Source of the DNA: Tetragonia tetragonoides | Lineage: Eukaryota; Streptophyta; Magnoliopsida; Caryophyllales; Aizoaceae | NCBI GenBank assembly: GCA_038025085.1 | Contig: CM076146.1 | Span: forward strand, 13,144,001-13,208,000 | Reading direction: 5' to 3' | Length of the DNA stretch: 64,000 nucleotides | In this document: piece after piece, positions 17,301 through 53,879 of the stretch | How positions within the stretch are numbered: position 1 is the first letter of the stretch | Layout: every line of letters begins with the position of its first letter | Notes under the pieces: generated by a model | What the model was told of the DNA's origin: nothing | The model's input: the letters and a program-made list of their open reading frames with translations, nothing else | Databases searched by the model: none | Made by a program: the position numbers and the translations under genes

Positions 17301-19335
17301 ACAAAGCCACAAGGCCCAATTTATTTTTCTTGCAAAAGAGGTCCACCTCCTTTTGCTTATTAGGGCCATTCAGCCCTTTAACGTTCCACGCTACTAATCT
17401 ATCCATGACTATCAACAGGGATAGCGACATCACCTGCCTCTTTTTCAGCCTCTTCCTCATAGTTAAGTTGTTCATGCTGCAAAGTATCAGAAGAATTGTG
17501 AACACGTGTTTTGGAGATGATTAAAAAATATTGAGGTAGATAAGTGAATGAACAACATTCTGTCTTATCTTTGCCAAGGGTTGAAACACATAAAATTTTC
17601 TTGTAGAGATCAACCACCCCGTATGAAACCTAAGTGTGGGAAATATACCAGCTTTCTGTTTAAAGCACATTCCTTAATCAAACACAGTTTAACGATTTGG
17701 CTAGATTATCAACGCCCATTTGGAAAAGGCATTAGATTTAGTTTGTGCTCAGGCCTTAGCCATACAACAGGGTTTAGCAGGCAAAATCATCGTTTTGATT
17801 GATCGATGATACTCCCTCCGTATGGAAATAAGTCACTCTTGTAATATACTGTAGTAGTGGTGTGACTACTAATCTGGAATGGCGGAGTGTTTGTAACTCA
17901 ATATTCAAGCTTCTTGATGGAGTCTTTTGTCTCACCTTAATTGAAAACTGATATTTCGCGGAGAATAAAAAAAAAAAAGAATTCTTTGACTGTTTAATTT
18001 TTATTCCCATGGAAAATCAATGTGATATTTGCAAGGAGTAGGATCACAAAATGACACCGTTTGGTGAACCCAGCTCATATCTCCACATCAAAAATCTAGT
18101 TTATAGTACATCTCCTCTAGTTTGTGGCCTAATTTATTTGCTTGAGTGCTCAGTAGAATACATATTGGGTGATGCTTAAAAATTTTGAAAATTGCCACTC
18201 AACAAATTATAAGCATTTTGAACCTAATTCCATTGCAAATCTAAGATTGATGCCGTTTTGTATTATATGGTTTACAACTTCATGCACGATTGACCGGCTT
18301 TTCCCAAACACTACCAATGAGTTTCCCTTTTGATGGATGGTGTCCACACAATTTTATAAGAAATCAAGATGTTAGTTATTTTCTCTGAAGAAAGTTGCAA
18401 CCAAGATATTGAAGAAAAAAAGGTGTCGTCAAGAACTGGGTCTTTTTTGAAACCCATTACTATTCTACTGTAACAACCAAGTGATATTATGTGTGTTGTC
18501 TGTACTCTGTCAGAGTACTTGTCGATCAAAATTTAGTTGAAGACTTTTTGAATATGCGTGATGACTTGTTTCACTCCACAGTTGTGGATTATGGGTTCTA
18601 TTGCATTCTCTTTCTGTGAGGATCGATGATGGAGAAAGCCATATGGCATTTACAAGCATCTGTGATTTTGTTCACAATTTCTTCATCTGTGAGGAATGCC
18701 GCCAACATTTCTTTGAGATGTGTTCGAGGTGAAGGCTCTTAGACTCTTCGCTTTTAGCTTTGCTTTTTGAAGGCTCCATATTATTTCCTGAATGTTCGGA
18801 CAGGCATATTGGAATCATTATGTTTGGTTTTCTGACACAACCTAATTCTGATTTCAGTGCTCCTAATGCTTTCAACAAAACACGTGACATTGCACTTTGG
18901 TTGTGGAGTGCACATAATAAAGTCAATGAGAGACTTGCTAAAGAAGAAGCTCTTATGAGAACTGGAGATCCCAAGTACCCGAAGATGATTTGGCCTCCGA
19001 AGCAGCTTTGTCCTGCTTGCTATGTCTCATTGAGCCAGAAAAATAATGAAAGCAGTCAAATTAATTGGGACAACGATGAGGTGTTCAAGTTCCTGGCTAC
19101 TTACTACGGAAGAACGCTAGTGTCTCGAATCAAGGATGATGATGCGCTGATGACTGAGAAGCATGCTCGTCTTGAAGAACAAGTGGCCCGAACAAATGCT
19201 GTAGTTGTCCCTATTGGAGCAGCTTTGGCCATTGCTATTGCAAGCTGCGCCTTTGGAGCACTCGCTTGCTTTTGGCGTTCACAGCAGAAGAGTCGAAAGT
19301 ATAGACCTCATCTACACTCTTTAAAGAACATATGA
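2311..19335 (+). CDS. QSOX1: QSOX-type sulfhydryl oxidase, ten visible exons, 5' end outside window
   Basis: Flavin-linked thiol oxidase that makes disulfides in secretory-pathway proteins, passing electrons from a thioredoxin CxxC through an ERV/ALR FAD domain to oxygen. Coding exons read from the sequence: 2311-2335, 2478-2570, 3661-3839, 9205-9274, 9375-9443, 9532-9605, 9693-9849, 13512-13552, 18582-18728, 18858-19335. All have AG/GT borders and compatible phases; they sum to one completing base plus 444 codons (443 aa and TGA). The first visible exon holds the redox motif CPAC. The ERV part shows CRGSRNDTRGFS-CGLW, the second redox centre CEEC, LWLWSAHNKVNERL, and LCPACY. A C-terminal membrane span (about 25 residues starting at VVVPIGAALA) ends in LHSLKNI. 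The plant type, with one thioredoxin domain and one membrane span, fits. Exon 1 (signal peptide) is absent. Introns 4, 8 and 9 (5.4, 3.7 and 5.0 kb) are packed with transposons, yet the reading frame is intact. Confidence 0.97.
3225..3490 (+). mobile_element. LINE fragment in QSOX intron 3
   Basis: A plus-strand frame contains PASVLEFLQTRF...LLWCIALLAILW. This parallels PATVLEMLQVRF...LLWRNAIFAILW in the minus-strand LINE at 3909-4393, so both come from one family (the segment just after the zinc-binding RT C-terminal domain). Neither a poly(A) tail nor clear ends are visible. The flank carries AGTATTGACAAAA twice, 54 bp apart (about 3208 and 3262), which may be a duplication connected with the insertion. 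Confidence 0.55.
3909..4393 (-). mobile_element. 5'-truncated LINE with 14-bp target duplication
   Basis: Flanked on both sides by TTCTAAACATTGTT (3895-3908 and 4394-4407). The left copy runs straight into the poly-T that marks the 3' end on the minus strand. The minus-strand frame has a zinc-binding RT C-terminal domain, CVLC...SSHFLHC, followed by WVFPATVLEML and a conserved tail to about 3970. Only the last 0.5 kb of a LINE was copied. It lies in QSOX intron 4. The 5' junction is odd: sequence near 4371-4404 resembles the flank at 4409-4443, suggesting extra copying when the insertion was sealed. Confidence 0.85.
4444..5291. other. unassigned part of QSOX intron 4
   Basis: No coding exon, RNA gene or transposon terminus was recognised. 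Short pyrimidine-rich tracts occur near 4795-4830 and 4925-4945. Confidence 0.5.
5805..6375. mobile_element. hAT-like non-autonomous element (MITE) in the hairpin's left arm
   Basis: Terminal inverted repeats TAGGGATGGCAATGGGGCGG and, complemented from the right end, TAGGGATGGCAGTGGGGCGG. The flanking 8-mers CCTAGAAC (5797-5804) and CCTGGAAC (6376-6383) match at 7 of 8 bases, as expected for a hAT target duplication. The interior is rich in GCGGGTATCCA-like subterminal repeats and has no transposase. Because the opposite hairpin arm lacks it, it inserted after the hairpin formed. Confidence 0.85.
7446..8454. mobile_element. MULE-like element with about 110-bp terminal inverted repeats
   Basis: The left end beginning GGAAACTTCCTATTGGTGCC pairs with the complement of the right end (GGAGATTCCTATTGGTGGCC). 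The similarity continues for roughly 110 bp with repeated GGTGCC/GGTACC blocks. Long imperfect terminal repeats suit Mutator-like elements. It sits in a poly-T tract of the hairpin's right arm, so a 9-bp target duplication of T residues is likely but cannot be delimited exactly. No transposase is seen; the GA-rich interior has no recognised gene. Confidence 0.7.
8757..8826 (+). mobile_element. possible SINE fragment (tRNA box A only)
   Basis: CTGGCTCAGTTGGTAGCG resembles a tRNA box A, and the following TTTAGTGTATCCCGCACATC and C-rich run resemble a plant SINE head. The expected box B (GGTTCGANTCC) is missing, so this would be a deleted copy. No target duplication was found. Confidence 0.3.
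9850..10685. other. unassigned start of QSOX intron 8
   Basis: Intron sequence after the exon ending at 9849. No gene or repeat end was recognised. Confidence 0.5.
10686..11716 (-). mobile_element. LINE-derived insertion carrying an ORF1-like segment
   Basis: A poly-T run at about 10688-10720, followed by TAAGAATTTTTTTTTATTAAG, is the same kind of 3' end as the LINE at 790. Minus-strand frames from 11716 to 10843 (with one frame change around 11200) encode a hydrophilic, Gln- and Gly-rich protein stretch without RT or endonuclease motifs. It resembles the variable region between LINE ORF1 and the endonuclease, but no named domain was recognised. ACTAGT occurs at both presumed ends, too short to count as a firm target duplication. 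Located in QSOX intron 8. Confidence 0.5.
11730..12555. other. unassigned part of QSOX intron 8
   Basis: No exon, RNA or repeat terminus was recognised in this AT-rich segment. Confidence 0.45.
12566..12996 (+). mobile_element. 5'-truncated LINE ending in an RNase H domain
   Basis: Bounded by the direct repeat AAGTCATGTA (12556-12565 and 12997-13006). The plus-strand frame at 12592-12807 ends with NVHRSRRGNAIADGLAKQG, the typical C-terminal end of a plant LINE RNase H (a vHVPRxxNxxADxLA-type motif). After it come a 3' untranslated region and the end CTTAATAAAATTGACTTGAT plus an A-rich tail. This is a different LINE lineage from the zinc-domain LINEs elsewhere in this gene. Located in QSOX intron 8, same strand as the gene. 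Confidence 0.82.
13247..13397 (+). mobile_element. tRNA-derived SINE with 18-bp target duplication
   Basis: Perfect direct repeats TAATAATCTAAACTTGAT flank the element (13229-13246 and 13398-13415). The head has a pol III box A (GTAGCTCAGTTGG, about 13259) and box B (GGTTCGAGTCC, about 13306) spaced as in a tRNA. It is followed by a non-tRNA body and a short A-rich end. Length is 151 bp. It inserted just upstream of the small QSOX exon at 13512. Confidence 0.92.
13816..17497 (-). mobile_element. 3.7-kb LINE with 15-bp target duplication in QSOX intron 9
   Basis: GTGAACACGTGTTTT occurs at 13801-13815 and 17498-17512, giving exact borders; the 3' poly(A) is the T run at the left edge. On the minus strand it runs from the ORF1 C-terminal remnant (about 17497-17405) through the endonuclease start (WNVKGLN, ETKIR, 17400-17074), a broken middle, the reverse transcriptase (16002-14653) and a zinc-binding C-terminal domain (CFFC...HLFFAC, about 14400-14340), to a 3' untranslated region. 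It is truncated in ORF1 and has several frameshifts and stops, so it cannot move by itself. The intact long target duplication suggests a fairly recent insertion. Confidence 0.95.
14653..16002 (-). pseudogene. LINE reverse transcriptase domain (inactive)
   Basis: A 449-residue open frame covers most of the RT fingers, palm and thumb: LCLIPKV, FRPITCCN, the QGAFV...NI segment, SGVRQGDLVSPLLF and the catalytic FADDLMVF box. The box holding the first catalytic aspartate reads KIHLRKAYS, with His where Asp is expected and Ser where KAYD normally has Asp. The enzyme should therefore be dead despite the long frame. The frame is cut off from the endonuclease part by stops upstream of 16002. Confidence 0.9.
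17811..17835. mobile_element. possible Stowaway-type terminus, orphan
   Basis: ACTCCCTCCGTATGGAAATA resembles the end of the Stowaway-like elements found elsewhere in this window. No matching opposite end was found within a few hundred bases, so it may be a solo remnant. Confidence 0.35.
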
Positions 19336-30260: not shown

Positions 30261-31674
30261 TGTTGAGTAATTGAGTTTTGAAGATGACAAACTTATTTAA
30301 TTATAAAGTGAAGCTACTTAACTTGTGTGTTAGTGTTTCAGAAATTTATTTATACAAGAGTTTGCTAGATAAAGATCAAGAAGAAGACACAAGTTATTCT
30401 CATGTTCTCTAGGTTATTTATGTATTTCTTAGAGTTCATGTTAAAGCTAAGTAATTATATAAATGTGGAATTTATATTTGTTAGGCAACAAAATTAATAA
30501 ACATTTAAAAATGTCATTGTGTTGGAAACGATCCTTGAAACTTCAGTATTCATTGGAACGTTACCTACACACATATATTAATGCACTCAATCGTCTCAGT
30601 TAAATTTAAGATCAAGATCTTAAATTTAATATCTTAATATTTACATCCTTTGTATTGTGCCAAATATATTATTTGCAAAGAGCTTTTTCTGAAATCTATT
30701 TATTCTTATTTTTGGCTATATGGTTTTTAGCTAGGAAGAAAATACTTTCTATAAAAATATTTATTTTATTTTCTTCATAAAAACTGATTTTGATATGTAT
30801 GCTTTATATGATAAATATATTTATTCATCTTTATGAAAATCTTGTTTACCAAATAAAGGAAAAAGAGATTTGGTTTTCTAGTTGCAAATAGGTTCCTAGT
30901 TGCTTTTTACTTCTTGGTCATGCGTATAAAATGAAGATTTTGCATAAATCAGTTTTACGTCTCTTGTTGCACCGAACGTAATATCACTTTTGAGAGAGTC
31001 TAATTTACAAACAGTTCCACATTACATAGAACGTTGCCTAATAGCTATAAGTTTCACACGTTATTCATTGCAAAGCTATAGGATTACTATTTTACCTTTC
31101 CACTTATTGAAGTTCATCAAGGTAAACATTGTTCGTTGATTACCACAGCTAGTAGACCGGTAAAACGGGTCGACCCAGCGGGTTACGGGTCGGGTTACTT
31201 CGGATTCTGGTCGGGTCGGTTACGGGTTGGTTTTTGGTTCGAATCCAATTTTTAGTTCATTTTACCGGGTTGTAAACGGGTTCGGGTCAAGAATGTTTTT
31301 TCAGGACCCTAAAAAAAGGGGTCGGGTCGGCTTTTTACAGCTCTAACAGCTAGAGTTAGTTGTTCAGAGATTGCCTTGGGTGAGTTCCTGAGTGCGTTTG
31401 GCTTGGAAGAGTTTTTAAGTGCGTTTGGCTTGGACAAGTGTTCGAGTGCGTGGGTTGAGATAGAGTTAACTTGATCGAGTTGTACTATTCTCTTAATAAA
31501 AGAAGTAGTCTTTAAAGTCCTTTGGGCCGTGGTTTTTTATCCTTTGTGAGTTACAAAGGGTTTTCCACATAAATCGTGAGTGCTTTAATTCTAGTTCTTT
31601 TATACTTGTTTTAAATTCCGCAAATTTGGGGTAATACAATTCACTCCCCTCTTGTGTTCCTTGTGCTACTAACA
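30261..31674 (+). repeat. copia 5' LTR (contains hAT-like insertion)
   Basis: Matches the right LTR at 36992-38212 through its length except for a 193-bp insertion plus 8-bp duplication at 31153-31353. TG...CA ends. Confidence 0.93.
31153..31345. mobile_element. 193-bp hAT-like MITE nested in the copia LTR
   Basis: The sister LTR lacks this segment (around 37893), which proves an insertion. ACAGCTAG is repeated exactly on both sides (31145-31152 and 31346-31353). Ends TAGACCGGTAAAACGGG and, complemented, TAGAGCTGTAAAAAGCC are imperfect terminal repeats. The interior is rich in GGGTCGGGT words, linking it to the CCCGAACC elements at 26720 and 54976. Confidence 0.93.
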
Positions 31675-31676
31675 AT

Positions 31677-31689
31677 TGGTATCAGAACC
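31677..31689 (+). promoter_or_regulatory. copia primer-binding site (initiator tRNA-Met type)
   Basis: TGGTATCAGAACC lies two bases after the LTR end. It is the usual Met-tRNA primer site of plant copia elements with one change in the last positions. Confidence 0.85.
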
Positions 31690-32580
31690 TCGTTTTCTCT
31701 TAGATACATGTTCACGCTTGAAGAGAATGTCGATCTCAAACACATCGAATGGTATTAAAGAGGGTCAATCTGCACTGAGACCTCCATTCTTCGACGGGCA
31801 CAACTACTCTGGATGGAAAAATCGTATGAAAATTTACATTAAATCTGAAGACTTTCAGATATGGCAAGTAGTTAAGAATGAACCGTTTAAATTTGTTGAC
31901 ACGACATGTAAAGAAGTAGAAGAGGAAAAATGGACCGAAATAAATTTTAGAAAAATTGAAAAAAATGCTAAAGCAATGAAATTTTTACATTGTGCCTTAG
32001 ATTCTGATGAATTTAATAGAATATTTGCTTGTTGTAGTGCTAAAGAAATTTGGGATACTTTACAAACTGCTCATGAAGGATCTAATGAAGTGAAATTGTC
32101 TAAAATCGATTTACTAGTTCAACAATATGAATCTTTTCAGATTAAGAAAAACGAATCGATTAAGGATACGTTTACTCGCTTTACTATTATTATAAATGAA
32201 CTAAAGTCTCTTGGAAGAGAATATGCAGTAGAAGATCAAGTTAGAAAAATTCTGAGGAGTCTACCGAATACTGAACATTGAATGCATAAAGTTACTGCAA
32301 TTCAAGAGGCTAGGGATCTCACAAAACTACAACTAGACCAATTGATGGGATCTTTATTAACTCATGAGATGAAACTTGAATCCCGAGCCACGGACTCATC
32401 TAACAATAATAGAGGACTTGCTTTCAAAACCAATAATGATGAGCCAATCACAAATTTTGATGAAGATGATATTATGTTCATTGTTAAAAAGTTTTCCAAG
32501 TTCTTAAAAATTTTTAATAGCAAAAATAATTACTCTACTAATTCTTACAAGAAAAATATTAAATGCTGGACTAAGGTGGA

Positions 32581-39689: not shown

Positions 39690-41070
39690 TTTCTTCCTAA
39701 AATCAATTAGCTCCCATTGTATTAATATAAAACAATAGGTAGCATGGTTTAATTGTGATATTGGTGATTTTTTTTAAATAAATAAATCTAATTAAGAGTT
39801 CAAAAAATCTTTTACACATTGTGAATGAAGGTTTTTCGAGCTCAACCAAAAAAATAAAAATCTTATATACATGGGGATGAAAGTTAAAAAATAAAAAATA
39901 ATAATTTAAATATAGGTGGATGTGGATTAGATCCCAACCTCAATTTGACCCAATTCTGTTTTTATGTAATATTATATATATGCCCCTAATAATACGTCTA
40001 CCATAAAACAATCCACAAAATGGTTTAGCTAATATGAGATGCGGTTGAGCAAACATTTTGAAACGTTATGCTTGGATGATGAGATAGCGTTGAGCAGGAC
40101 GTTGGCTTCACCATCATCGTCAACGGACTTAAATATGATTACTTGTGATTTGGATTGAAATAATTTCATATTCATGTGGGGCAATGAAGATAATATGATA
40201 TTATGGAGGGTAAGTTATGTCATTCATTTCATTTCCTTGGTTTCTTTTTTTGATGAAGCACTATGAAGTACAAGACATTTAAGTTGTTTTTCTTGGGTAA
40301 AATCATATATATGGAGTTTCATTTAGCTTAGAGGTTTAAGAACTTGCCATTTGGAGTGTGTCATGTCATGTAATGGTCTAAAGCTTTCTTTCCGGCTTCG
40401 TTTATGTATGTTACCCATCTTTCTTTCTGTATACAAAATTACGAAAGAGCTTACACGAAACATGTGAAATGTGAAAACAAAAGGAGAATGTCATTGTCAG
40501 GTTACACAATACTATTGTCGGGTCATTTAAATTATCCTATTTAAAATATTAATGTAGGTGTTTTGCTGTGGTGCTAGCAGATGTTCAATCCAAGTCTCTT
40601 CTTAATTTCCCCCTCTCAACTTTCAATGTGGTTTGAGTATTCAACTTTACTCTTCTCACAACACATAAAGAAAATTTGAGATCACGCCTAATAAGGAAAA
40701 CAAATATTCTTCAACTGAATATGGAAACAAGCAAAAACAAAAAATATAGATCATGAAAAAAATATGAAACTTACAATCTCCCGTGTAAAATAAAGAAGTA
40801 AAAAGTGAAAAAAAGAATGAAAACATTCATTGTAATTTGTACCGCCTCTTTCAAAATTGAGAAACAACATAAAGACAAGAAAGACATCTAAAAAAGTCAA
40901 GGGAAAAAAAAACAAAAGGCCATCAAATATTAGAACACAAGATGATACGAAAAAAGGAAAGAAATGGGAAAAACAATACTCTTCCTTGGTGATATATTCC
41001 CTTTTTTTTTATGTGTGTCTTTTCGTGATAGGCTAACAAAATCCAATACAAGACAATTGATTTTATATTT
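39690..41070. other. AT-rich intergenic region
   Basis: No supported gene or delimited repeat was found between the MITE pair and the U2-like cluster. Confidence 0.4.
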
Positions 41071-41074
41071 TAGG

Positions 41075-41126
41075 AGTCCCACATCGAAGACATAAGTAAG
41101 AATCGAGGTTGATAAGAGATATAAAA
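41075..41126 (+). promoter_or_regulatory. snRNA promoter unit 1: USE and TATA
   Basis: AGTCCCACATCG at 41075-41086, a 33-base gap, TATAAAA at 41120-41126. The USE is a perfect consensus match. The U2-like RNA starts 36 bases after the first T of the TATA box. Confidence 0.85.
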
Positions 41127-41155
41127 ACTAAAAGTTTAAGGAGCTAAAGAAAAGC

Positions 41156-41235
41156 ATACCTTTATCGGCTATTTGCATGACTATGATCAAGCGAAGTATC
41201 TATTTATTAGTTTAAATATAATACTTTTATCACTA
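41156..41235 (+). ncRNA. U2 snRNA-like copy 1, degenerate
   Basis: It starts ATACCTTTATCGGC, against ATACCTTTCTCGGC in plant U2. It keeps GATCAAGCGAAGTATCT, ATTAGTTTAAATAT and a trailing AT-rich match. The branch-site pairing element GTAGTA reads GAAGTA. Only the first 75-80 nt of the usual roughly 195 nt can be aligned; stem-loops III and IV are not visible. Most likely a pseudogene. Confidence 0.78.
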
Positions 41236-41488
41236 GCTCATTGCATATATATATTATTACACTCTGGTAATTTAAATTATTACACTCGGGTAATTGGCTC
41301 ACAATGATGGCAATTTATTCTTTTAAAGACAAGGCGATTATATTTAGAGCTACAAATATATTGAAAATTAGTTGAAAATGAATTGCAATAGAGTAAAAAT
41401 ATTGAAATAAATCCAACATAAAATAGTAATATACTTCTAGAGCCAATGAAAATAACTTTTCAATGCACATTCTTTTGGGTACTCATGA

Positions 41489-41537
41489 GCCCCACATTGA
41501 AAGGATATGAGAGTAATGAAATAGGGAACATATAAAA
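41489..41537 (+). promoter_or_regulatory. snRNA promoter unit 2: USE and TATA
   Basis: GCCCCACATTG (two changes from consensus) at 41489-41499, 31 bases, then TATAAAA at 41531-41537. The U2-like start lies 37 bases after the first T of the TATA box, in line with unit 1. Confidence 0.7.
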
Positions 41538-41567
41538 AAATTGGAGCACTAAACTTAAAATTAAAGC

Positions 41568-41650
41568 ATGTGTTTTCTTCGATTTATTTTTTGGGGGGGC
41601 CTAAGATCGAGTATGATATAAGTCATATCAGTTTATTATCTAATATGTAG
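41568..41650 (+). ncRNA. U2 snRNA-like copy 2, degenerate
   Basis: The 5' start is worn (ATGTGTTTTCTTCG), but CCTAAGATCGAGTATGATAT and CATATCAGTTTATTATCTAA follow in the order of plant U2 (CTAAGATCAAGTGTAGTAT, TATCAGTTTAATATCTGA). The branch-site element has changed. A G-run of seven replaces the loop near 41593-41599. Confidence 0.75.
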
Positions 41651-41672
41651 TGTCAAATTTGTCAATGCCCAT

Positions 41673-41684
41673 AGTCCCATATCG
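41673..41684 (+). promoter_or_regulatory. snRNA USE, unit 3 (no clear RNA)
   Basis: AGTCCCATATCG, one change from consensus. A CATAAAC word lies 35 bases downstream. The next unit starts about 95 bases later, so little room is left for a U2 body; none is recognised. Confidence 0.55.
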
Positions 41685-41778
41685 GATAAGGTTGTGACGG
41701 ATAAAGCATAATTGAGGCATAAACTGGCATTGTTTCATATCGATGCTCAATCAAATATTTATGGCAAATGTTATTATG

Positions 41779-41790
41779 AGTCCCACATCG
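41779..41790 (+). promoter_or_regulatory. snRNA USE, unit 4 (no clear RNA)
   Basis: AGTCCCACATCG, perfect consensus. A TATA-like GGATAAAAAA is 57 bases downstream, too far, and a second USE-like CGAGCCCCTCAGCG lies at about 41819-41832, so the spacing may have been stretched by an insertion. ATAC at 41882 is at the right distance from that TATA-like box, but no U2 similarity follows. Confidence 0.55.
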
Positions 41791-41999
41791 GGGAATGAAG
41801 TAACAAAACCTGTTGTTACGAGCCCCTCAGCGGAGAAGTAAATAAGGGATAAAAAAAAGGCAGAGAGGGAAAATTTTGCTCATACAAAACATGAAGAGCA
41901 AAAAAGAGGCAATCAATACAAATAAACTAGTGGTAGCAGTATTATTGAAGTATATTAATTTTGCCTCTTAGGGATTAAAAAAAACATTTATTACACCAC

Positions 42000-42050
42000 A
42001 TCTCACATCGAAAAACTAAGTGAGATGTGAAGTGGAGAAGAAATATAAAA
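42000..42050 (+). promoter_or_regulatory. snRNA promoter unit 5: USE and TATA
   Basis: ATCTCACATCG at 42000-42010, a 33-base gap, TATAAAA at 42044-42050. The downstream GTAACTTTCTC (about 42084) recalls the U2 5' end ATACCTTTCTC and then stops at the next USE, so the RNA part is cut off. Confidence 0.7.
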
Positions 42051-42109
42051 ATTGAGGGCTAAAGTAGGAGGAAAAATAACTTCGTAACTTTCTCAATTCT
42101 GTTAGTACA

Positions 42110-42162
42110 AGTCCCACATCGAAAAAAGTAGTGATAAGTGAAGTGGAGAAGTAGAATAAAAA
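42110..42162 (+). promoter_or_regulatory. snRNA promoter unit 6: USE and TATA-like box
   Basis: AGTCCCACATCG at 42110-42121, a 33-base gap, AATAAAAA from 42155. The gap sequence AAGTGAAGTGGAGAAG is shared with unit 5, showing duplication of these two units. Confidence 0.75.
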
Positions 42163-42194
42163 CATAGGTTAAAGTAAGAGAAAGACATCGCTTC

Positions 42195-42275
42195 ATAACA
42201 TTATTGGCTTCTTGGCTAAAGTGAACTGTAATAAATATTTTATAAGTCTAATATTTTTTATTTTCATATGTGGAT
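42195..42275 (+). ncRNA. U2 snRNA-like copy 6, degenerate
   Basis: ATAACATTATTGGCTTCTTG then GCTAAAGTGAACTGTA line up base for base with plant U2 ATACCTTTCTCGGCCTTTTG, GCTAAGATCAAGTGTA. AAGTCTAATAT and CATATGTGG follow in the expected order. Substitutions are frequent; the branch-site region is altered. Pseudogene-like. Confidence 0.72.
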
Positions 42276-42358
42276 TACTGAATGAGAATGATATCAAAAT
42301 AATTTTGTGGTTTAAAGATACTTAAAAAGTAGCTTTGGAAAATTATGTATAGTGTGCA

Positions 42359-44404
42359 TGTTGAGTGCTTTCGCAGGCACTACAAATTAATATTTAACAT
42401 TCACTCACGAACTCTAACTAACTAGTAGCTAGGGTAAGTAAGGGCCGATCCCACAGAGATTATGTTGCTAAAGTTAAATTAATTATCTAAATTAAAAATA
42501 AAAACTAAGTAAACTAAAATTTATAAACTAAAGAAGATAAAATTACTACGACTACAATTCTCCTAAAATGAACTATCTTCTATTTTACTTAAATTACACA
42601 AGTTTTGGGGGGATTTTTAAGCGGTGGATTAACTAGTCAAAAAAAATAAAATAATAATCTATTAATTAACTAAGGACACAAATTTAGAAAGTAATTAAAA
42701 AGTGATGCAACAACAGGCAAGAGACATGTAATTTTATCAAGATATATGGATTTAATCATCGATCATGTGAATGGTTATTGAATAAGTTGACCGTAGAATT
42801 ATCTTGAATGCAAGTAAATTCCCTATCTTCTCATTAGTTTAATTTAACCACATATAAGTATGTATGTTAAATCCTAATTAAGTTAACTGACTTGACCAAG
42901 AAACCATGAATTAAATCAGTTAAATTAATTGCATTACGATTAAGAAGACATCGCCAACTATTAGAATAATTTCAGTGAGAATGCTCCAGCTAAAATAATA
43001 TCCAATCTATGTCAAAACTGTAATAATAAATTAATAGGCAAGAAAAACTTCAACCTTTAATATATTATTAGTTGCTACTTTGATTAATTAATTAAGATTA
43101 ATTAACCTAGCAAGAGAAACATGTAAATTAATCTAAGTGACCAATTTAAATTAATTAAGCATGCTTCACATAAGATATGTCACAAGTTTAACATAATACT
43201 CAAAATACCAAACACATAAAATTAAGCACACAATATATGTCTCATAAACCAAAATATCAATAGTCAACTACATGTTCTTACCCAAGAAACTTAAGCTAAC
43301 ATAATAACATACGCAAAGAAAATGGAAGAAAAGGAAATAGAAGAACTCATTGAATAGCTTCTGGGTGTTATTTCTAGCTCTTAGTACAGGCGTCTTACCT
43401 CCAAATGTATGACCCAAAACTTCGATGTCAATTAATTACTAAGACCTTAACTTAAGGTTAGCTAAGTTAAGATCCTAGCACTAATTATGCCCTCTCTCTC
43501 TCACTTCCTTTTCCCTTGTTTTCTATTATGATATTGTATCTCTCTTCTTGTGTATCTTCAGCAAATGGGTCTTGTTCTATTTATAGGCTCAAGTATGAGC
43601 TACTGAGCTACTGCATCCTTCATCTTTAGGAGACTTCTTCAACACCCATTTAATATTGCCGGCCAAGTTATTGTCCAATCAAATGCAAAGAGTCTTCCCT
43701 TGTGCTGCTATAGCTGTAGTTGCTGCATGTGTTCGTACATGGCTGCCCTTGTTTTGCCTTTGTTGAATTCAATTCAACCAAGCTACATATACTAGCCTAG
43801 CCACCCCTATTGCTACAACAGTTCTCCTTGGTTTCTTCTGGTTCTTCCTCCTAAGCATTTCTTCACTCTTCTTCTTTGGTACATTAAATGTTGTCGTCCA
43901 AAAATGACATGTGTTTCTTGTTTTTCTTGACAACAATCTTGAGCAGTGCAATCTGAAACTTGGACTTCAAAGTGGTACTGTACTGCTGTCTACAAAGTCA
44001 AACGGGAGAAAGTCCTAACATTTACTTGAATCACGCTGCTTGTTTCATAAAAATGTCGCATGATCTCGTAATGTGTTGGACAGCTGCTGCTTGTGACCCA
44101 ATTTTGTATCTGTTCCTCACCGAATTTGAAATTACTCAAAACATGAAAGTTGTATCTCTTGTTGTAAGGTTTCCGCAGCATTTTGAATCATCTGATTACG
44201 ATGTCGGACGAGGGAGTTATGGCCAAATTACAGTAGACTTGTCAAATTGCCAAAAATTTCGGATTTAGCTCAATTTATACAAAATGTATCCTTTTACTTT
44301 CTAATTCAATATATATATGAGCTAAAATGACTAGTCTTGACACAAAATAAGCATAAAGTACTAAGTATAAGGGATTAAATATGTCGTCGTTTTGGCACTT
44401 ATCA
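42359..44404 (-). repeat. gypsy 3' LTR (left)
   Basis: Begins TGTTGAGTGC and ends GGCACTTATCA on the plus strand, matching the right LTR. A GTGAGGGAATT purine stretch just inside (44405-44415, minus strand) is the likely polypurine primer. Confidence 0.92.
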
Positions 44405-44415
44405 AATTCCCTCAC

Positions 44416-45813
44416 ACTTAGCTTTTTGCTCGTCCTCGGGCAAATTGACTCCTAACACACTACAAACAAACTAAAAGTCCTAACTATGAATGAAAAGTGG
44501 TACATATCACAATTTATGAGCATAAATTAGTTTTGGAGGATACGTAATCAAACCAACTTGTACCTTTAACTAATAGAAAATACTTAACTTGGTTTTCTCA
44601 TCTAAAGATCATCGAGTCAAAGTAGTGGGTTTTCAAGTTTAATGCAAATGAAATGTTACGAAAATATGCATAACATGAATCAAGAGGATTTTTCAAATGG
44701 TATAACAAGGCTAGGGTGAAAAGGTATAAAAATTATCTGGGATGTGGTGATAGAAATCCAAAGAATAGTAGAGCAGAGCAATACCACAAGTGAAAACACA
44801 CCAAATTTACTATCACCATGTTCCTTTTTTTTCTTTTTTTTTTTGTTTTTTGTTTAGGAAAAACATGTCTCTTAATGTTCTGTCACTTTTGAACTGACCC
44901 ATGTAGCGAGCTTTAAATCAATGACTCTCGTTCCAGTTGGTCCAAGGCATTAGGTGTTAAGGCACCCCTCAGATTTACTTACTCGAGCCATATTCAAATA
45001 GAGACAAAAACACCACACGTACATAATTGGGTATAATTTCATATTTTTACTTTGGAATTCAACCCAAACATTGGTACGCACAGCCTTATTCATTTATTTC
45101 CCTTTTCACACAACTTTTTTTTTTCTTTTTCTTTCACCACACTTGAATCGTGGAACATAAAGACGATACCATACATAACCATCCAGACTTTGTTGCTTAC
45201 AATGCTCTACTAATCTAATGATAGGTAGATCATTTATTTTTGAATTTAAGTTTATTTGTGGTGCAACCAAAAAGAAGGCCGAAAAAGGCTCAAATTGGCT
45301 CACTAGTGAAAGTAATGTCATGGTAGGGTATTTGGCTATGTGGTGGTATAAAGTCCTTATGCCTCAATCATTTCCATGCATGCACATAATCAGTGAAAAT
45401 CAACAAGTAACAACTTCAAAAAGGTTAACTTTGACTCAAATCTCTTATGATTTTGACCATCAAGTTAAGGATAATCCATTAGTTATAAGTATAAAGTCAA
45501 AAAGTTTATATCCTTCACTAGCTCAGTATGATCACAAAGGACATGCACCAATTCCTTTATTGGATAAAACACACCAAACCACACTAAAACAAAACCAAAA
45601 ACGAAAAATTTACCCTAAAAAGACACAAACAGCAATTTGTTCTCCCCCCTACACTTAAATCTTACATTGTCCTCAATGTGAAGTTTAAATGTAAAGAAAA
45701 GAAACAAAGCAGAAAACAAACATGAAATAAAAAGGAAAGAAATTCTCCCTTGGGTTGCCTCCCAAGTAGCACCTTTGTTTTCTGTCGTTGGCTCGACTAA
45801 ATGTCAGCTCTCT
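44416..45813 (-). other. non-coding 3' region of the gypsy element
   Basis: Space between the integrase end and the 3' LTR where some Athila elements carry an env-like frame. No long minus-strand frame or envelope-type membrane protein is seen here. T-rich runs occur at 44825-44860 and 45113-45135. Confidence 0.6.
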
Positions 45814-46755
45814 TTAATCCGAATAGACCGGATTTTCCATATCAATCACATCTAGCCAGTTGGCTGTAAACCCTTCATAAAAAGGATTAAGTCTGTGGCC
45901 ATTCACTTTGAAAACTTTTTCTGTATCAATGCTTCGTATCTCAACTGCACCATGCTCAAACACATTAGTGACTTCAAAAGGACCAATCCATCTTGATTTC
46001 AACTTACCAGGAAAGAGTTTTATTCGAGAGTTATAAAGCAAAATTTTGTCACCAATGTTAAAACTCTTCCTAGAACGCATTTTGTCATGATAAAGCTTTA
46101 TTTTCTCTTTATAAATCCTAGAATTCTCATATGCATCATTCCTAATTTCTTCCAATTCTTGGATTTGCAACTTCCTATTAACAATAGCATTATCATAGTC
46201 TCAGTTGCACTGTTTAATAGCCCAAAATGCCCTATGTTCCAACTCTTTAGGAAGATGACAAGCTTTTCCAAACAACAAGCGGTAAGAAGACATGCCAATT
46301 GGGGTCTTAAATGCAGTTCTATATGCCCAGAGTGCATCACCCAGGCGAACACTCCAATCTTTTCTATTAGGGTTCACAACTTTTTCCAAGATTGATTTTA
46401 TTTCCCTATTAGAAATTTTAGCATGTCCATTTGTTTGGGGATGGTATGCAGTTGATATCTTATGAGTAACATGGTGTTTCTTAAGCAAAGATTCAACAAC
46501 TCGATAACAAAAGTGAGTTCCCCTATCACTAATGATAGCTTTAGGCACACTAAATCTATTAAAAATATGGTTCCTAACAAACTCAACAACCACTTTCGAA
46601 TCATCAGTTCTAGTTGCTTTTGCTTCTACCCATTTTGAAACATAATCAACTGCAATCAAAATGTAAACATTTCCTAACGAAGGTGGAAAAGGTCCCATGA
46701 AATCGATTCCCCATACATCAAATATTTCAAGCACAAAAATAGATCTTAGGGGCAT
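45814..46755 (-). pseudogene. gypsy integrase, broken by in-frame stops
   Basis: The core frame (46755-46201) shows the DDE residues in order: [18 protein letters not shown] and the Glu in [10 protein letters not shown] after HPQTNG. TAA at 46756-46758 separates it from the zinc-binding HHCC part upstream. TGA at 46201-46203 separates it from the C-terminal part (46170-45814), which holds [22 protein letters not shown], the GPF/Y-type module. Both stops are in frame. The catalytic residues themselves are intact. Confidence 0.9.
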
Positions 46756-48523
46756 TTAATCTCTCTTGGAGATATTCCTAGTTCTTTGACATGGTTCACA
46801 GGATTTTACGAACAGATAAGCATCCTTATGTAAAGAGGGCCAAAAGAATCCACATTCCAAAACTTTATGAGCAGTTCGCTTTGGACCAAAATGGCCACCA
46901 CATTCAAATGCATGACAAAACTCAAGAATGGATTTAATTTCATGATCAGGCACACATTTTCTCATAATTTCATCTGAACATATTTTAAACAGATAAGGTT
47001 CATCCCACATGTAGTGTTTCGCATCATATTTGATCCTATCTTTTTGAGCTCTAGATAAATCATTAGGTAGTTCCTTGGTGACTAAATAATTAACAATATC
47101 AGCATACCAAGGTAAGTTACCATGCAATGCAAAAAAATGCTCATCGGGAAACAAATCTGACAATGGAAATACTTCTCTGTCTTGGATGATTCTGCTCAAA
47201 TGATCTGCAAAAGAGTTCTCAACTCCTTTCTTATCTCTAATCTCAATGTCAAACTCTTGGAGCAATAAAACCCATCTATGAAGTCTAGGCTTAGACTCCT
47301 TTTTCTTCCAGAGGTGCCTCAAAGCTGCATGGTTAGAATAGATGATCACTTTAGTACCCAACAAATAAGAACAAAATTTCTCTAAAGCAAACACAATTGC
47401 ATACAACTCTTTTTCAGTTGTTGTATAATTGCATTGGGCATCATCAAGTGTCCTCGAAGCATAATAAATCACATGGGAGACTCGCCCCACTCTTTGTCCT
47501 AAAACTGCACCAACTGCCTTATTACTAGCATCACACATTATTTCAAAAGGCAAGTTCCAATCAGGTGGTTGTATAACATGAGCTGAAACAAGCTTCTCTT
47601 TAAGTGCATCAAAAGCCACTCTACAATTCTCATCAAATTCAAATGACACTTCTTTTTGTAACAATCTACACAATGGTTGTGCCACTTTTGAATTTTTTTT
47701 AATGAACCTTCTATAAAAATCAGCATGCCCCAAAAAGGAACGAATTTCACGAACACAAGAGGGTATAGGAGGAATTTAATCACATCAATTTTTGCTTTAT
47801 CAACCTCAAGACCTTTAGAAGAGACCACATGCCCTAAGACTATACCTTTTTCAACCATAAAATGACATTTCTCATAATTCAAAACCAAGTTAGTCTCAAT
47901 GCACCTTTTTAGCACAAGTTCTAAATTCTCCAAACATGTATCAAATGAATCACCATAGACAGTACAATCATTCATGAAAACCTCAATAATGTGAGAAACA
48001 TAATTAGAGAAAATAGACATCATGCATCTTTGAAAAGTAGCAGGGGCATTGCAAAGACCAAAAGGCATCCTTCGATATGCAAACGTCCCAAATGGACAAG
48101 TGAAAGTTGTCTTTTCCTGATCCTCAGGGCTATGACAATCTGATTGTACCTAGAATAACCGTCTAAAAAGCAGTAGTGAGAACGTCCAGCTAGACGCTCC
48201 AACATTTGGTCCATAAAAGGGAGAGGAAAATGGTCTTTTCTGGTAGCAGCATTAAGCTTTTTATAATCTATGCACACTCTCCATCCATTTTGCACTCTAG
48301 TGGAAACTAATTCTCCTTCTTTATTCTCAACAACTGTTAGACCGGTTATCTTAGGCACTACATGAATAGGACTCACCCATTGAGAATCAGTGATAGGGTA
48401 TATGACTCCAACATCCAGTAACTTCAAAATCTCTTTTTTAACAACCTCCATCATAGGGGGGTTCAAACGACGTTGAGTCTCCCTAGATGTTTTAGCTCCT
48501 TCTTCTAAAATGATTTTATGCAT
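46756..48523 (-). pseudogene. gypsy reverse transcriptase-RNase H and integrase zinc finger
   Basis: The N-terminal RT part (48523-48020) has the GWRVCIDYKKLN and YCFLDGYS boxes. A frameshift near 48100 leads to RMPFGLCNAPATFQRCM and to VFMNDCTVYG, where the catalytic YxDD-type box has Asn for the first Asp. A second shift near 47750 leads to [11 protein letters not shown], the RNase H start [28 protein letters not shown], and YSNHAAL with Asn where the catalytic Asp should be. The integrase zinc-binding segment [10 protein letters not shown]...CEPCQR follows, up to the stop at 46756. Confidence 0.92.
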
Positions 48524-48562
48524 GCAAGTTGAAGGGCTAATTCCTTTGATGTCAGCTAAAGT

Positions 48563-49721
48563 CTATCCTATGGCAGTTTTATGGTCCTTAAGAATATTGA
48601 CCAATCGTTCCTCGTCAGAAGAAGAAAGGTTATTAGCAATGATCACAGGCAATGTTTCACCTACACTTAAAAATGCATATTTCAAATGTGCAGGAAGTGG
48701 TTTTAGTTCAAGGGAAGGAGGTGACATGACAGATGGGGACAACTTCTCATGTGAAACTGGAAGATCAACTTTTGCCAGATTAGGTGTAGAAACAACACAA
48801 GCTGATGACAATTCTTTCACAAGATCAACTAAATCATGATCACATGCTACATGTAAGGTCTCAAGAGTATGCTCATCAATGCTCAAATTCATAATTGCAT
48901 GCATCAAATCAGTGTGATTTAATTCAAACATGTCTTCAACCAGAGAATCACAAACATAAATAGTGCAGAAGGAAGACATTTCATCACTGGGGTGTTTCAC
49001 AACATCATAGATGTTAAAAGAAATTGTCTCTCCGTCAAACTCCATAGAAAGAGTTCCATCATGCACATCTATCTTGGTCTTAACAGTTCTAAGAAAAGGT
49101 CTTCCTAAGAGAATGGGTGAAAGGTCGGCTGAAGTACAATGTCCTTCCATCCTCAACACATAAAAATCAGCAGGAAAAATCAACTCATTTACTTTGACCA
49201 AGACATCTTCTATGACACCCTCGGGATATGCCACGGACCTGTCTGCTAATTGAATGACAACACTGGTGGGTTTCAAAGGTCCAAGATTTAGGGAGGTGTA
49301 AACGGATAAAAGCATGACATTAATTGAAGCTCCCAAATTTAACATACACCCAGAAATCTCAATGTTTCCTATGATACAAGGTATAGCAAACATACCATGG
49401 TCTTTTTGTTTTGGAGGAAGTTTCTTTTGTAAAACAACCGAAACGTTCTCTCCAACAGTCACTTTTTCATTACCCTTAAGTCTTTTCTTGTTAGTGCAAC
49501 GTTCTTTCAAAAATTTTGGCATAGCGAGGAACTTGCTTAATGGCATCTAACAAGGAAATGTTCACTTCAATTTTCTTAAAAACCTCTATAACATCTTTCT
49601 CAACTTCCTCCTTTTTATTTTTAGCCAACCTAGCAGGAAATGGTGGCCTAATCTTGATCTCAGGGAATGGTTCTTCACACTTTTTCTCATTTTGTTTCAA
49701 CTTGCTAGTCTCAGGGTTCAC
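48563..49721 (-). pseudogene. gypsy protease region, active-site Asp lost
   Basis: The frame at 49546-48563 contains the retropepsin-like box CMLNLGASINVM, where the family motif is DLGA. The catalytic Asp is therefore Asn and the protease is predicted inactive. The family hallmarks ADRSVAYPEGVIEDVLVKV and ILLGRPFLRT follow. The upstream part (49721-49491) is in another frame and holds PPFPARL, which precedes protease in related elements. Confidence 0.88.
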
Positions 49722-49799
49722 ATTTGGTTCAACTTCTAACTCCTTCTCTAAATCTAAAGGATTTTTTCTCTCAGGTCCTTTTAATTATTTTCCACTCCT

Positions 49800-51134
49800 T
49801 TATGTCACAACACAAGCATTTTCTCTAGGGTTCAAAGGTTGTGAGGAAAGTTTGTTAGACAATTGAGCCTTCAATTGGCTCACCTCAGAAGCTAACTGCC
49901 CCATTTGACTCTCCATGTTCTGAATACTAGCCTTAGTATCCTTTTGAAAATTAATCGAGCTAGAGGCAAGAGACTTTACCATATCCTCAAGAGACCTACC
50001 TTGGAATTGGGTTTGGGGAGGTTGACTAGATGAAGTTTGGCCTTGATCAAAGCCAGGGGGGTTGTTAGGATTAGGTGGTCTAACTTCTTGATTCCCCCAC
50101 CTAAAATTAGGATCATCCCGCCATCCTTCATTGTAGGTGTTCGAATAAGGGTTATATCTCCTTTGAGGCGGTCCAGGAAATCCTCCAAGAGCATTAGCTT
50201 GCTCTATATTTTCAAACAAGGTGGGACAAGAATCAGTCGGATGTCCAGTGTTTAGGCAAATACCACATGCTTTGACATGCACATTATTACCACTCAACAT
50301 CTTTCCAACAAGGTTTGTTAGGTTGTCTAATTTTTGTTCCAAATTATGCACACCAACCTCTTTTACCTTTCGGGTGTCATCTTGTCTAGGTCCAAGTGAT
50401 TGTGTGTTTGCAGCCATATTAGCAATTAATTTTCGAGCGTCTTGTGGGGTTTTATCCACTAGGGCACCACCACTAGCAGCATCGATCATGGATCTATCAG
50501 TTACAAGAAGACCTTCATAAAAGTATTGGATTAGTAATTGTTCAGTTATCTGGTGATGAGAACAACTAGCACACAATCTATTAAATCTCTCCCAATACTC
50601 ATGCAAAGACTCTCCATTATACTGACGAATACCACAAATGTCCTTCCTAATGGAAGCTGCAAGAGAAGCAGGAAAGAACTTTTCTAGGAAAAGCCTCTGC
50701 ATCTCAGTCCATGTACTCACAGAACCAGGGGGGCAAATAATACAACCAATCATTAGCACTATCTTGCAGGCTAAAAGGAAAAGCACGCAATTTAACCACA
50801 TCCTCTTCTACCCCTTCAGGTCTCATGGTACTACACACAACATGAAATTCTTTTAAGCGTTAGTGAGGATCTTCACCAGACATACCACGAAAAACAGGTA
50901 ACAACCGAATAAATGCAATTTAAAAGCAGTAGTCACTTAAGGAAACACAATGCATAAGGGTTGGTCATCTAAACTAGGAGCATCGAGCTCCTTGAGAGTA
51001 CGATTAGCCATATTAAAATAAGTTGGAACAGTCTCACCAAAAGAAGTAGCGAAACTGAAAAACTCCTCTAGTGAATAGATCGCTTCTTCTTTGAATCCTT
51101 CTTTTCCAATGACTTTACCGTTTCTCAACTTCAT
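49800..51134 (-). pseudogene. gypsy gag, broken
   Basis: Starts MKLRNGKVIGKEGF (51134), typical for Athila-type gag. A stop at 50937 and a frameshift near 50750 split it from the main gag frame (50801-49800). That frame contains WTEMQRLFLEKFFPAS, IRQYNGESLHEYWERFNRLC, LIQYFYEGL and a CCHC knuckle CGICLNTGHPTDSC. A Pro/Gln/Asn-rich segment and the helical NMESQMGQLASEVSQL segment follow. A TAA after CVVT ends it before the protease. Confidence 0.9.
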
Positions 51135-51223
51135 GCACCAAGGGTACCTATTTTACAGTTGTAACTACAAAACCAAAAGGAAAAAAAAAAATTAGAAATT
51201 AATTAAACTTAGCAAAACAATAA

Positions 51224-51242
51224 TCCCCGGCAACGGCGCCAA
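51224..51242 (-). promoter_or_regulatory. gypsy primer-binding site (tRNA-Asp)
   Basis: The plus strand reads ATCCCCGGCAACGGCGCCA, the 3' end of plant tRNA-Asp(GUC) including its CCA-adjacent bases. On the element's strand this is the complementary primer site, four bases from the LTR edge. Confidence 0.92.
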
Positions 51243-51246
51243 AATT

Positions 51247-51526
51247 TATTGAGTGCTGTCGCAAGCACTACAAATTAATATTTATGATTCACTCATGAAC
51301 TCTAACTAACTAGTAGTTAGGGTAAGTAAGGGTCGATCCCACGGAGATTATGTTGCTAAAGTTAAATTAATTATCTAAATTAAAAATAAAAACTAAGTAA
51401 ACTAAAATTTATAAACTAAAGAAAATAAAATTACTACAACTACAATTCTCCTAAAATGAACTATCTTCTATTTTACTTAAATTACACAAGTTTTGGGGGG
51501 GATTTTAAGCGGTGGATTAACTAGTC

Positions 51527-51613
<87 letters not shown>

Positions 51614-53338
51614 CTATTAATTAACTAAGGACACAAATTTAAAAAGTGATTAAAAAGTGATGTCAACAATAGGCAAGAGACATGTAATTTTATCAAGATA
51701 TATGGATTTAATCATCGATCATGTGAATGGTTATTGAATAAGTTGACTGTAGAATTATCTTGAATGCAAGTAAATTCCCTATCTTCTCATTAGTTTAATT
51801 TAACCACATATAAGTCTGTATGTTAAATCCTAATTAAGTTAACTGACTTGACCAAGAAATCATGAATTAAATCAGTTAAATTAATTGCATTACGATTAAG
51901 AAGACATCGCCAACTATTGGAATAATTTAAGTGAGAATGCTCCAACTAAAATAATATCCAATCTATGTCAAAACTGTAATAATAAATTAATAGGCAAGAA
52001 AAACTTCAACCTTTAATCTATTAATAGTTGCCACTTTGATTAATTAATTAAGATTAATTAACCTAGCAAGAGAAACATGTAAATTAATCTAAGTGGCCAA
52101 TTTAAATTAATTAAGCATGCTTCACATAAGATATGTCACAAGTTTAACATAATACTCAAAATACCAAACACATAAAATTAAGCACACAATATATATCTCA
52201 TAAACAAAAATATTAAGAGTCAATTACATGTTCTTGCCCAAGAAACCTAAGCTAACATAATAACATACGCAAAGAAAATGGAAGAAAAGGGAATAGAAGA
52301 ACTCATTGAATAGCTCCCGGGTGTTATTTATAACTCTAAGTACAGGCGTCTTAGCTCCAAATGTATGACCCAAAACTTCGATGTCAATTAATTACTAAGA
52401 CCTTAACTTAAGGTTAGCTAAGTTAAGATCCTAGCACTAATTATGCCCTCTCTCTCTCACTTCCTTTCCCTTGTTTTCTATTATGATATTGTACCTCTCT
52501 TCTTATGTATCTTCAGCAAATGGGTCTTGTTCTATTTATAGGCTCAAGTATCTGCATCCTTCATCTTTAGGAGACTTCTTCAACACCCATTTAATATTGC
52601 CGGCCAAGTTATTGTCCAATCAAATGCAAAGAGTCTTCCCTTGTGCTGCTATAGCTGTAGTTGCTGCATGTGTTCGTACATGGCTGCCCTTGTTTTGCTT
52701 TTGTTTGAATTCAATTCAACCAAGCTACATATACTAGCCTAGCCACCCCTATTGCTACAACAGTTGTCCTTGGTTTCTTTTGGTTCCTCCTAAGCATTTC
52801 TTCACTCTTCTTCTTTGGTCCATTAAATGTTGCCGTTCAAAAATGACATGTGTTTCTTGTTTTTCTTGACAATAATCTTGAGCAGTGCAATCTGAAACTT
52901 GGACTTCAAAGTGGTACTGTACTGCTATCTACAAAGTCAAATGGGCGAAAGTCCTAACATTTACTTGAATCACGCTGCTTGTTTCATAAAAATGTCGCAT
53001 GATCTCGTAATGTTTTGGACAGCTGCTGCTTGTGACCCAATTTTGTATCTGTTCCTCACCGAATTTGAAATTACTCAAAACATGAAAGTTGTATCTCTTG
53101 TTGCAAGGTTTCCGCAACATTTTGAATCATCTGATTACGATGTCAGACGAGGGAGTTATGGCCAAATTACAGTAAACCTGTCAAATTGCCAAAAATTACG
53201 GGTTTAGCTCAATTTATACAAAATGTATCTTTTGCTTTCTAATTCAATATAGGAGCTAAAACGACTAGTCTTGACACAAAATAAGCATAAAGTACTAAGT
53301 ATAAGGGATTAAATATGTCGTCGTTTTGGCACTTATCA
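51247..53338 (-). repeat. gypsy 5' LTR (right)
   Basis: 2092 bp. It starts TATTGAG on the plus strand (one base off the TG end seen in the left LTR) and ends GGCACTTATCA. It contains an AAT expansion absent from the left LTR and lacks a 10-bp duplication (CTACTGAG region near 43600) present in the left one. Confidence 0.92.
51527..51613. repeat. (AAT)29 microsatellite inside the LTR
   Basis: 87 bp of uninterrupted AAT units. The same spot in the left LTR (about 42640-42657) has only AAAATAAAATAATAAT. The expansion therefore arose after the element inserted. Confidence 0.95.
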
Positions 53339-53610
53339 GTGCATTATTGTAATATACTAAATTAATATCTTAACTAAACTTAGATTAATATTAAAGAAGG
53401 TGAAAGAGACATTATATATATTATAAGTCATGTCATATACACCTACGATTCCCGATTAATATGCAATTTTATTGAAGGTTGAAACTTGCCATAGGTTTTC
53501 AAAGTGTATGTAGCACATACATTCTAAAATCGCATGACCGTTTTATTTTATAAGAAGTTTTTCTTTTTTATCATAAACGTTAGGTAAACTCTCTTTTTAA
53601 AAGAAAATTA

Positions 53611-53639
53611 TCACGTGCATTGCACGGGCAAAAACTAGT
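53611..53639 (+). mobile_element. candidate Helitron 3' terminus
   Basis: A small stem-loop CGTGC-ATT-GCACG (53614-53626) is followed eight bases later by CTAGT. This is the arrangement of a Helitron 3' end (hairpin, short spacer, CTRR before host T). The 5' end (TC...) was not found; the element may extend left across the gypsy insertion. Confidence 0.45.
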
Positions 53640-53879
53640 ATATGAAAATATAAAAAAGCTTAGTATTTCAATATTTGACTTGGCAATAATATTTTGTGAC
53701 CTGCCAATAACATTCCCTACTCGTAACATTTGTGTAGCTAAAGCCCTCAAGAATTAGTTGTAGTGAATTTTCTTCCCACCTAAATTCACTCAAGTATAAA
53801 AATCACCCTCGACTCTTCTTAATTATCGAAAGGAGAGGGAAAGGAGAGAGGAAAAAATGAAACTCAACCTATCGACTAA

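What the first reader, a model, noticed from the sequence alone, without database searches (positions are those of the whole stretch)
41075..42275. Tandem cluster of decayed U2 snRNA genes with snRNA-type promoters
Seen: six USE words (RTCCCACATCG-like) in 1.05 kb on one strand, three of them exactly 33 bases and one 31 bases before a TATA-like box, with U2-like 5' sequence (ATACCTTTATCGGC...; CTAAGATCGAGTATG...; TTGGCTAAAGTGAACTGTA) at the expected distance in units 1, 2 and 6. Known: plant pol II snRNA genes use a USE about 33-34 bases before TATA. Inferred: the units come from local duplication of a U2 locus and the RNA parts have decayed (branch-site element changed, 3' half absent) while the promoters stayed readable, so the array might still fire and give short unstable or novel RNAs.
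Basis: partly seen in the sequence, partly recalled or inferred. Interest (0 to 1): 0.85.

Follow-up and report, generated by a model that had tools for sequence, protein, structure and literature searches.

The report
Jumping element carrying U2-gene array
The row of worn-out splicing-RNA (U2) genes is real, but it appears to be cargo inside a rolling-circle transposon that copied it, control signals included, to other chromosomes of what looks like a plant genome.

Summary
Observation confirmed, origin reinterpreted. The six USE words (41076-42121, +) are far above chance: 5 USE-TATA pairs against a shuffle mean of 0.008. A U2 profile from 16 U2 genes of the same genome puts its four best hits in the window inside the array (E 6.9e-6 to 0.0049; next 1.9), and 0 of 500 shuffles reach any of them. 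Rfam's own U2 model stays below its cut-off (15.6 of 46 bits). These are decayed U2 units with plant pol II snRNA-type promoters. They are not a local duplication of a U2 locus. The array is internal to a 2.1-kb non-autonomous Helitron (40535-42353 plus 53344-53638), split by an 11-kb LTR retrotransposon (42359-53338). Relatives lie on 13 other contigs; the ends read A|TC and hairpin-CTAG|T. Among close copies the promoter words decay like the rest. Across subfamilies the TATA block is the best kept, and USE and spacer are kept better than the RNA part. Literature searches (open-access library only) listed no Helitron carrying snRNA genes. Transcription, copy number and the autonomous partner are untested.

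The parts
40535..42353 (+). Non-autonomous Helitron, left part, from 5'-TC (host A at 40534) to the retrotransposon insertion
   Evidence: left end A|TCCTATTTAAAATATT shared with relatives; longest stop-free run in the two Helitron parts 85 codons
53344..53638 (+). Helitron, right part: hairpin CGTGCATTGCACG 53614-53626, 8 nt, CTAG 53635-53638, host T 53639
   Evidence: continues relatives' sequence; right end
42359..53338 (-). LTR retrotransposon nested in the Helitron; GTGCA at 42354-42358 and 53339-53343
   Evidence: junctions and LTR matches; gag, RNase H and integrase Pfam matches on -; LTR alignment
41076..41086 (+). unit 1 USE (exact); TATAAAAA at 41120-41127
41157..41333 (+). unit 1 U2-derived body: 41157-41215 and 41278-41333 around a 62-nt insert
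41489..41499 (+). unit 2 USE (2 mismatches); TATA box at offset 42 (41531)
41599..41650 (+). unit 2 U2-derived body
41674..41684 (+). unit 3 USE (1 mismatch); CATAAA at 41718
   Evidence: exact USE in relatives L049, L051, L052
41780..41790 (+). unit 4 USE (exact); no TATA-like box at the snRNA distance
42000..42010 (+). unit 5 USE (1 mismatch); TATAAAAA at 42044-42051
   Evidence: 42 of 55 positions identical to unit 6
42111..42121 (+). unit 6 USE (exact); AATAAAAA at 42155-42162
42202..42307 (+). unit 6 U2-derived body

Best explanation
A non-autonomous Helitron (rolling-circle DNA transposon) holds U2 snRNA gene units, USE-TATA promoters included, as an internal array, and Helitron transposition spread this array and related versions over the genome. 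Shown: U2 homology, promoter geometry, Helitron-type ends, dispersed relatives with the same unit order, and a later retrotransposon insertion. Inferred: capture at DNA level from a U2 gene, Rep/helicase supplied in trans, doubling of some units inside the element (units 5 and 6), and ordinary decay of each copy after landing. The promoters keep the layout of plant pol II snRNA genes, so they might still be usable, but no expression data were available. GTAGTA, the branch-site word of U2, is gone from this array, so an RNA made here would not be expected to work as U2.
For: 41 other matches of the array in the genome on 13 other contigs, best 91, 87 and 88% identity. Common left boundary and, past the nested insert, common right boundary. 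A|TC on the left in the window copy; CTAG|T in 8 of 8 right ends read, hairpin CGTGCATTGCACG exact in 4 and with 1-2 changes in 4. End profiles then found right ends in loci not used to build them (L066, L068, L070, weakly L069) and left ends in L051 and L060. A related Helitron sits between A and T of a USE word in L056 that is unbroken in the window. No long reading frame. U2 and promoter evidence.
Against: Of 22 other loci fetched, 6 show no end by profile (L054, L058, L064, L067, L071, L072), and in 2 of the 16 with an end (L056, L062) the end found belongs to a second Helitron. Left junctions are not A|TC in every copy (L063 and L065 differ, L051 lies in a TA repeat, L059 adjoins another CTAGT). 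The hairpin (13 nt, 8 nt from CTAG) is shorter than the 16-20 nt at 10-15 nt given in passages of PMC6591975. No empty site and no autonomous partner was shown, because the genome search did not complete.
Confidence: 0.88

Rival explanations
1. Local tandem duplication of a resident U2 locus, decayed in place.
For: Host U2 genes do sit in small groups (for example C10:41.49 Mb, C8:3.8 and 4.06 Mb, C4:41.93 Mb); units 5 and 6 look like a duplication (42 of 55 positions).
Against: The same unit order with common ends occurs on other chromosomes.
Confidence: 0.03
2. Segmental duplication, without a transposon, spread a decayed U2 cluster.
For: L063 and L065 are 95% alike over 2.3 kb, more than the element, so some copies may have moved that way.
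Against: In the window-type copies similarity stops at the same points, which read as Helitron ends.
Confidence: 0.06
3. The promoters are still selected: the array makes short functional RNAs, or transcription helps the element.
For: Across subfamilies the TATA block of unit 1 is invariant in 14 copies (rank 1 of 147) and USE is 0.884 against 0.736 for the U2 body; unit 6 similar in 12 copies (TATA rank 5 of 123, USE 18 of 120).
Against: Among close copies no excess at USE/TATA (0.890 against 0.878; 762 of 1825 shifts as good; all 17 copies 638 of 1825). The spacer is nearly as well kept as USE (0.823 and 0.831). With six rows, about one per subfamily, TATA of unit 6 falls to rank 29 of 123. 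No conserved fold in the compact units.
Confidence: 0.12
4. RNA-mediated copies (SINE-like or processed U2 pseudogenes).
For: Some U2 fragments in this genome show no USE within the 100 bases upstream (L022, L024-L027).
Against: Copies of the array include USE and TATA upstream of the RNA start and end in Helitron-type termini.
Confidence: 0.01

Closest known systems
Non-autonomous, gene-capturing plant Helitrons (review PMC13317346, passages)
   Same: Helitron-type ends, no transposase frame, host gene pieces inside, dispersed
   Different: Cargo is a row of U2 snRNA units with their own promoters, not protein-gene pieces
Arabidopsis RC/Helitrons carrying PHERES1 binding sites (PMC6914339, passages)
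   Same: Helitrons spreading a transcription signal through the genome
   Different: There single factor sites; here USE-TATA pairs with decayed RNA parts, and no binding or expression shown
Host U2 genes and U2 groups of this genome
   Same: USE-TATA layout and U2 sequence
   Different: Array units are decayed, lack GTAGTA and sit in a transposon; 0 of the 28 loci L001-L028 show these Helitron ends at E 0.01
Dada DNA transposons (PMC3706591, PMC8869645; listings and abstract starts only)
   Same: A DNA transposon linked to small RNA genes
   Different: Dada inserts into such genes; this element carries them

Membership tests
Helitron (non-autonomous) | 5'-TC next to host A | tested here: met
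   window copy ATTTAAATTA|TCCTATTT; not in every relative
Helitron (non-autonomous) | 3'-CTRR next to host T | tested here: met
   CTAG|T in 8 of 8 right ends, located by looking for CTAGT near the boundary; L070 reads CTAAT
Helitron (non-autonomous) | hairpin just before the 3' end | tested here: met
   CGTGCATTGCACG 8 nt before CTAG; shorter and closer than the 16-20 nt at 10-15 nt in PMC6591975 passages, within that paper's 2-10 nt search rule
Helitron (non-autonomous) | insertion into AT without target duplication | tested here: inconclusive
   junctions fit; one insertion into a USE word seen from the left side only (L056); no empty site found
Helitron (non-autonomous) | autonomous Rep/helicase partner with the same ends | not tested
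   The genome search not answered
Plant pol II snRNA promoter | USE RTCCCACATCG and TATA about four helical turns apart | tested here: met
   5 of 6 units, spacers 33 (4) and 31 (1); rule from PMC9845283 passages; the figure 33-34 is the finding's and recalled
Plant pol II snRNA promoter | drives transcription | not testable with these tools
   no expression data
U2 snRNA gene (functional) | U2 covariance score over cut-off | tested here: not met
   15.6 of 46 bits; no match at gathering in the window or in 20 relatives' stretches
U2 snRNA gene (functional) | intact branch-site word GTAGTA | tested here: not met
   absent from the + strand of the array
U2-derived sequence (pseudogene) | significant similarity to host U2 | tested here: met
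   units 1, 2 and 6; not units 3-5

The most novel reading that the evidence does not exclude
A Helitron lineage has made captured snRNA (USE-TATA) promoters part of its own biology: repeated short pol II units, some rebuilt into compact U2 minigenes, keep the donor element transcribed or give short capped RNAs. The core promoter was retained across diverging subfamilies while the RNA part drifted, so the genome holds a dispersed set of snRNA-type promoters that no longer serve U2.
Probability: 0.12. Interest if true: 0.8.

Novelty: new variant of a known kind. Interest (0 to 1): 0.52.

Why it matters
Helitrons are known to move gene pieces and single factor-binding sites. Here one moves whole small-nuclear-RNA promoters in a row. 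That offers a source for some degraded U2 copies in a plant genome, warns that USE-TATA pairs with U2 fragments need not mark a resident snRNA locus, and gives a natural test of whether plant snRNA promoters work wherever they land.

Tried and rejected
Local duplication and retroposition were rejected (dispersed copies with common ends; promoters copied too). Selection on promoter words after landing was tested and not found. A conserved fold in the compact units was tested and not found: L062 -13.6 kcal/mol against a shuffled mean of -12.5. A donor gene was sought by BLAST; no single intact U2 gene stands out. CpG-type change was counted in three copies (8 of 20, 6 of 28, 6 of 27 CpG pairs; overall divergence 0.077, 0.070, 0.072): small numbers, only suggestive of methylation. 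The Rfam gathering scan of 20 relatives' stretches gave nothing. Left open because the genome search stopped answering: copy number by the 3' end, left-end count, orphan USE-TATA pairs, the autonomous partner. The U2 profile used 16 of the 20 host hits over 92 bits; left out were L008, L018, C10:41492020 and C8:3805072.

Full report
CHECK. In the window the exact word RTCCCACATCG occurs three times, all on + within 41076-42121, with three more words of 1-2 mismatches between them. Five of the six have a TATA-like box 31 (one) or 33 (four) nt downstream. Dinucleotide shuffles of 40534-42360 give on average 0.134 words and 0.008 pairs (500 shuffles; maxima 2 and 1); the other strand gives none; the 50,893 bases outside the two elements give 0 pairs on + and 1 on -. 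Rfam at gathering level finds nothing in the window. With a loose threshold U2 matches 41156-41267 at 15.6 bits, E 4, under its cut-off of 46.

It holds 36 U2 matches at E<=0.001, 27 of them over the cut-off. I built a U2 body profile from 16 of the 20 hits over 92 bits. In the window its four best hits are 42202-42307 (E 6.9e-6), 41157-41215 (4.7e-5), 41278-41333 (0.0048) and 41599-41650 (0.0049), all in the array and on +; the fifth has E 1.9. None of 500 shuffles of the left part reaches the weakest of the four (best shuffle 10.8 bits against 11.4). BLAST to the intact genes agrees. In 14 of the 16 genes a USE was recognised, 74-78 nt before the RNA start. So units 1, 2 and 6 are U2-derived; units 3-5 are placed by promoter words and by their relatives.

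WHAT IT IS. The DNA 41060-42300 has 41 further matches in the genome, on 13 other contigs, the best at 91, 87 and 88% identity (C2, C2, C5); one of the 41 is an intact U2 gene (C6:44948042). I fetched 18 insertion loci, three more, and a longer stretch around the weak U2 hit L028 (L069): 22 loci besides the window. Similarity to the window starts at 40546 in L051 and 40530 in L052, and breaks at 42359-42361 in four copies. Those relatives go on past that point with shared sequence, and the continuation from the C2 copy reappears in the window at 53339-53649 (81%). The 11 kb between is an LTR retrotransposon: TG at 42359, CA at 53338, GTGCA on both sides (read), LTRs of about 2.0-2.1 kb, and gag, RNase H and integrase matches on the minus strand in an order that fits Gypsy. 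LTR identity is 95.0-95.6% in BLAST and 96.8% over 2,021 gap-free columns. At recalled plant rates of 7e-9 to 1.3e-8 per site per year that is about 1.2-2.3 million years, a lower bound for the Helitron's age at this site.

Without that insert the element is about 2.1 kb. Its left edge reads A|TCCTATTTAAAATATT and its right edge CGTGCATTGCACG-GGCAAAAA-CTAG|T. Eight of eight right ends read CTAG|T; the hairpin is exact in four and has 1-2 changes in four. These are the Helitron rules in the passages I read of PMC4778049, PMC6591975 and PMC13286980, though this hairpin is shorter than the 16-20 nt they give. No stop-free run exceeds 85 codons, so it is non-autonomous. End profiles built from eight right and eight left examples found right ends also in L066, L068 and L070 and weakly L069 (E 0.0076), and left ends in L051 and L060. 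In all, 16 of 22 other loci show at least one end; in L056 and L062 that end belongs to a second Helitron inserted in a unit. L054, L058, L064, L067, L071 and L072 show none by profile, though L064 reads like a decayed end. In L056 the second Helitron lies between A and T of a USE word that is unbroken in the window copy.

Several subfamilies exist. L057, L058, L059 and L062 carry compact units in which the U2 5' region is joined to a later U2 stem region, with TATA 45 nt from the USE start. L066 has its unit right before the 3' end. L069 is the only fetched relative that also appears in the U2 list (39.9 bits, under the cut-off) and keeps GTAGTA; the window array lacks it on +. None of the 28 loci L001-L028, fetched around U2 hits, shows these Helitron ends at E 0.01.

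HOW IT WORKS. Most likely a Helitron took up U2 units as DNA, some were doubled inside it, and transposition spread them. After landing, copies decay: among the six closest copies identity at USE/TATA words is 0.890 against 0.878 overall, and 762 of 1825 circular shifts do as well; with all 17 copies 0.867 against 0.855 and 638 of 1825. Across subfamilies, in 14 unit-1 copies the TATA block is invariant (rank 1 of 147), USE 0.884 (15 of 144), spacer 0.823, U2 body 0.736. In 12 unit-6 copies TATA is 0.938 (5 of 123), USE 0.893 (18 of 120), spacer 0.831, body 0.677; with six rows, about one per subfamily, TATA falls to 29 of 123 and USE to 23 of 120. This may be selection on the spreading lineage, or shared descent and the way copies were found; I do not claim it. 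Whether any unit is transcribed is unknown.

KNOWN OR NEW. In the held open-access library, Helitron with U2 snRNA gave 8 papers (listing), Helitrons with small nuclear RNA genes none, and snRNA with Helitron, pseudogene and transposon 34, of which 25 were listed. No title or abstract start shown describes a Helitron that carries snRNA genes. The term snRNA occurs once in PMC11986588, in a read-filtering step, and not at all in PMC13317346. Subscription papers and Repbase were not searched. The nearest precedent seen is the spread of PHERES1 sites by Arabidopsis Helitrons (PMC6914339, passages). I rate it a new variant of a known kind.

LIMITS. From then on the genome search did not complete, so total copy number, the autonomous partner and orphan promoter counts are missing. 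18 or more of the 41 matches were not examined beyond the table.

Noticed in passing
42359-53338: LTR retrotransposon with about 2.0-2.1 kb LTRs (96.8% alike over aligned columns) nested in the Helitron; gag, RNase H and integrase matches on the minus strand.
   Followed up: partly
L056:5180 and L062 (minus) 2111: Related Helitrons landed inside the U2 units of other copies: in a USE word (L056) and in a unit-6 promoter (L062).
   Followed up: partly
L057, L058, L059, L062: Compact tandem units: U2 5' region joined to a later U2 stem region under a USE-TATA promoter.
   Followed up: partly
L022, L024, L025, L026, L027: U2 5'-end fragments with no USE word in the 100 bases upstream, perhaps a different (RNA-copied) class.
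   Followed up: no
18733-19335; 14653-16038; 31673-32281: Open frames matching Evr1_Alr (perhaps a host gene exon), a reverse transcriptase and a copia-type gag.
   Followed up: no
L063 and L065: Two loci on C15 and C9 are 95% alike over 2.3 kb, beyond the unit; possibly a larger duplicated or mobile stretch.
   Followed up: no
L059:1-225: The left end of this Helitron directly adjoins another hairpin-CTAGT end, as if two Helitrons lay end to end.
   Followed up: no
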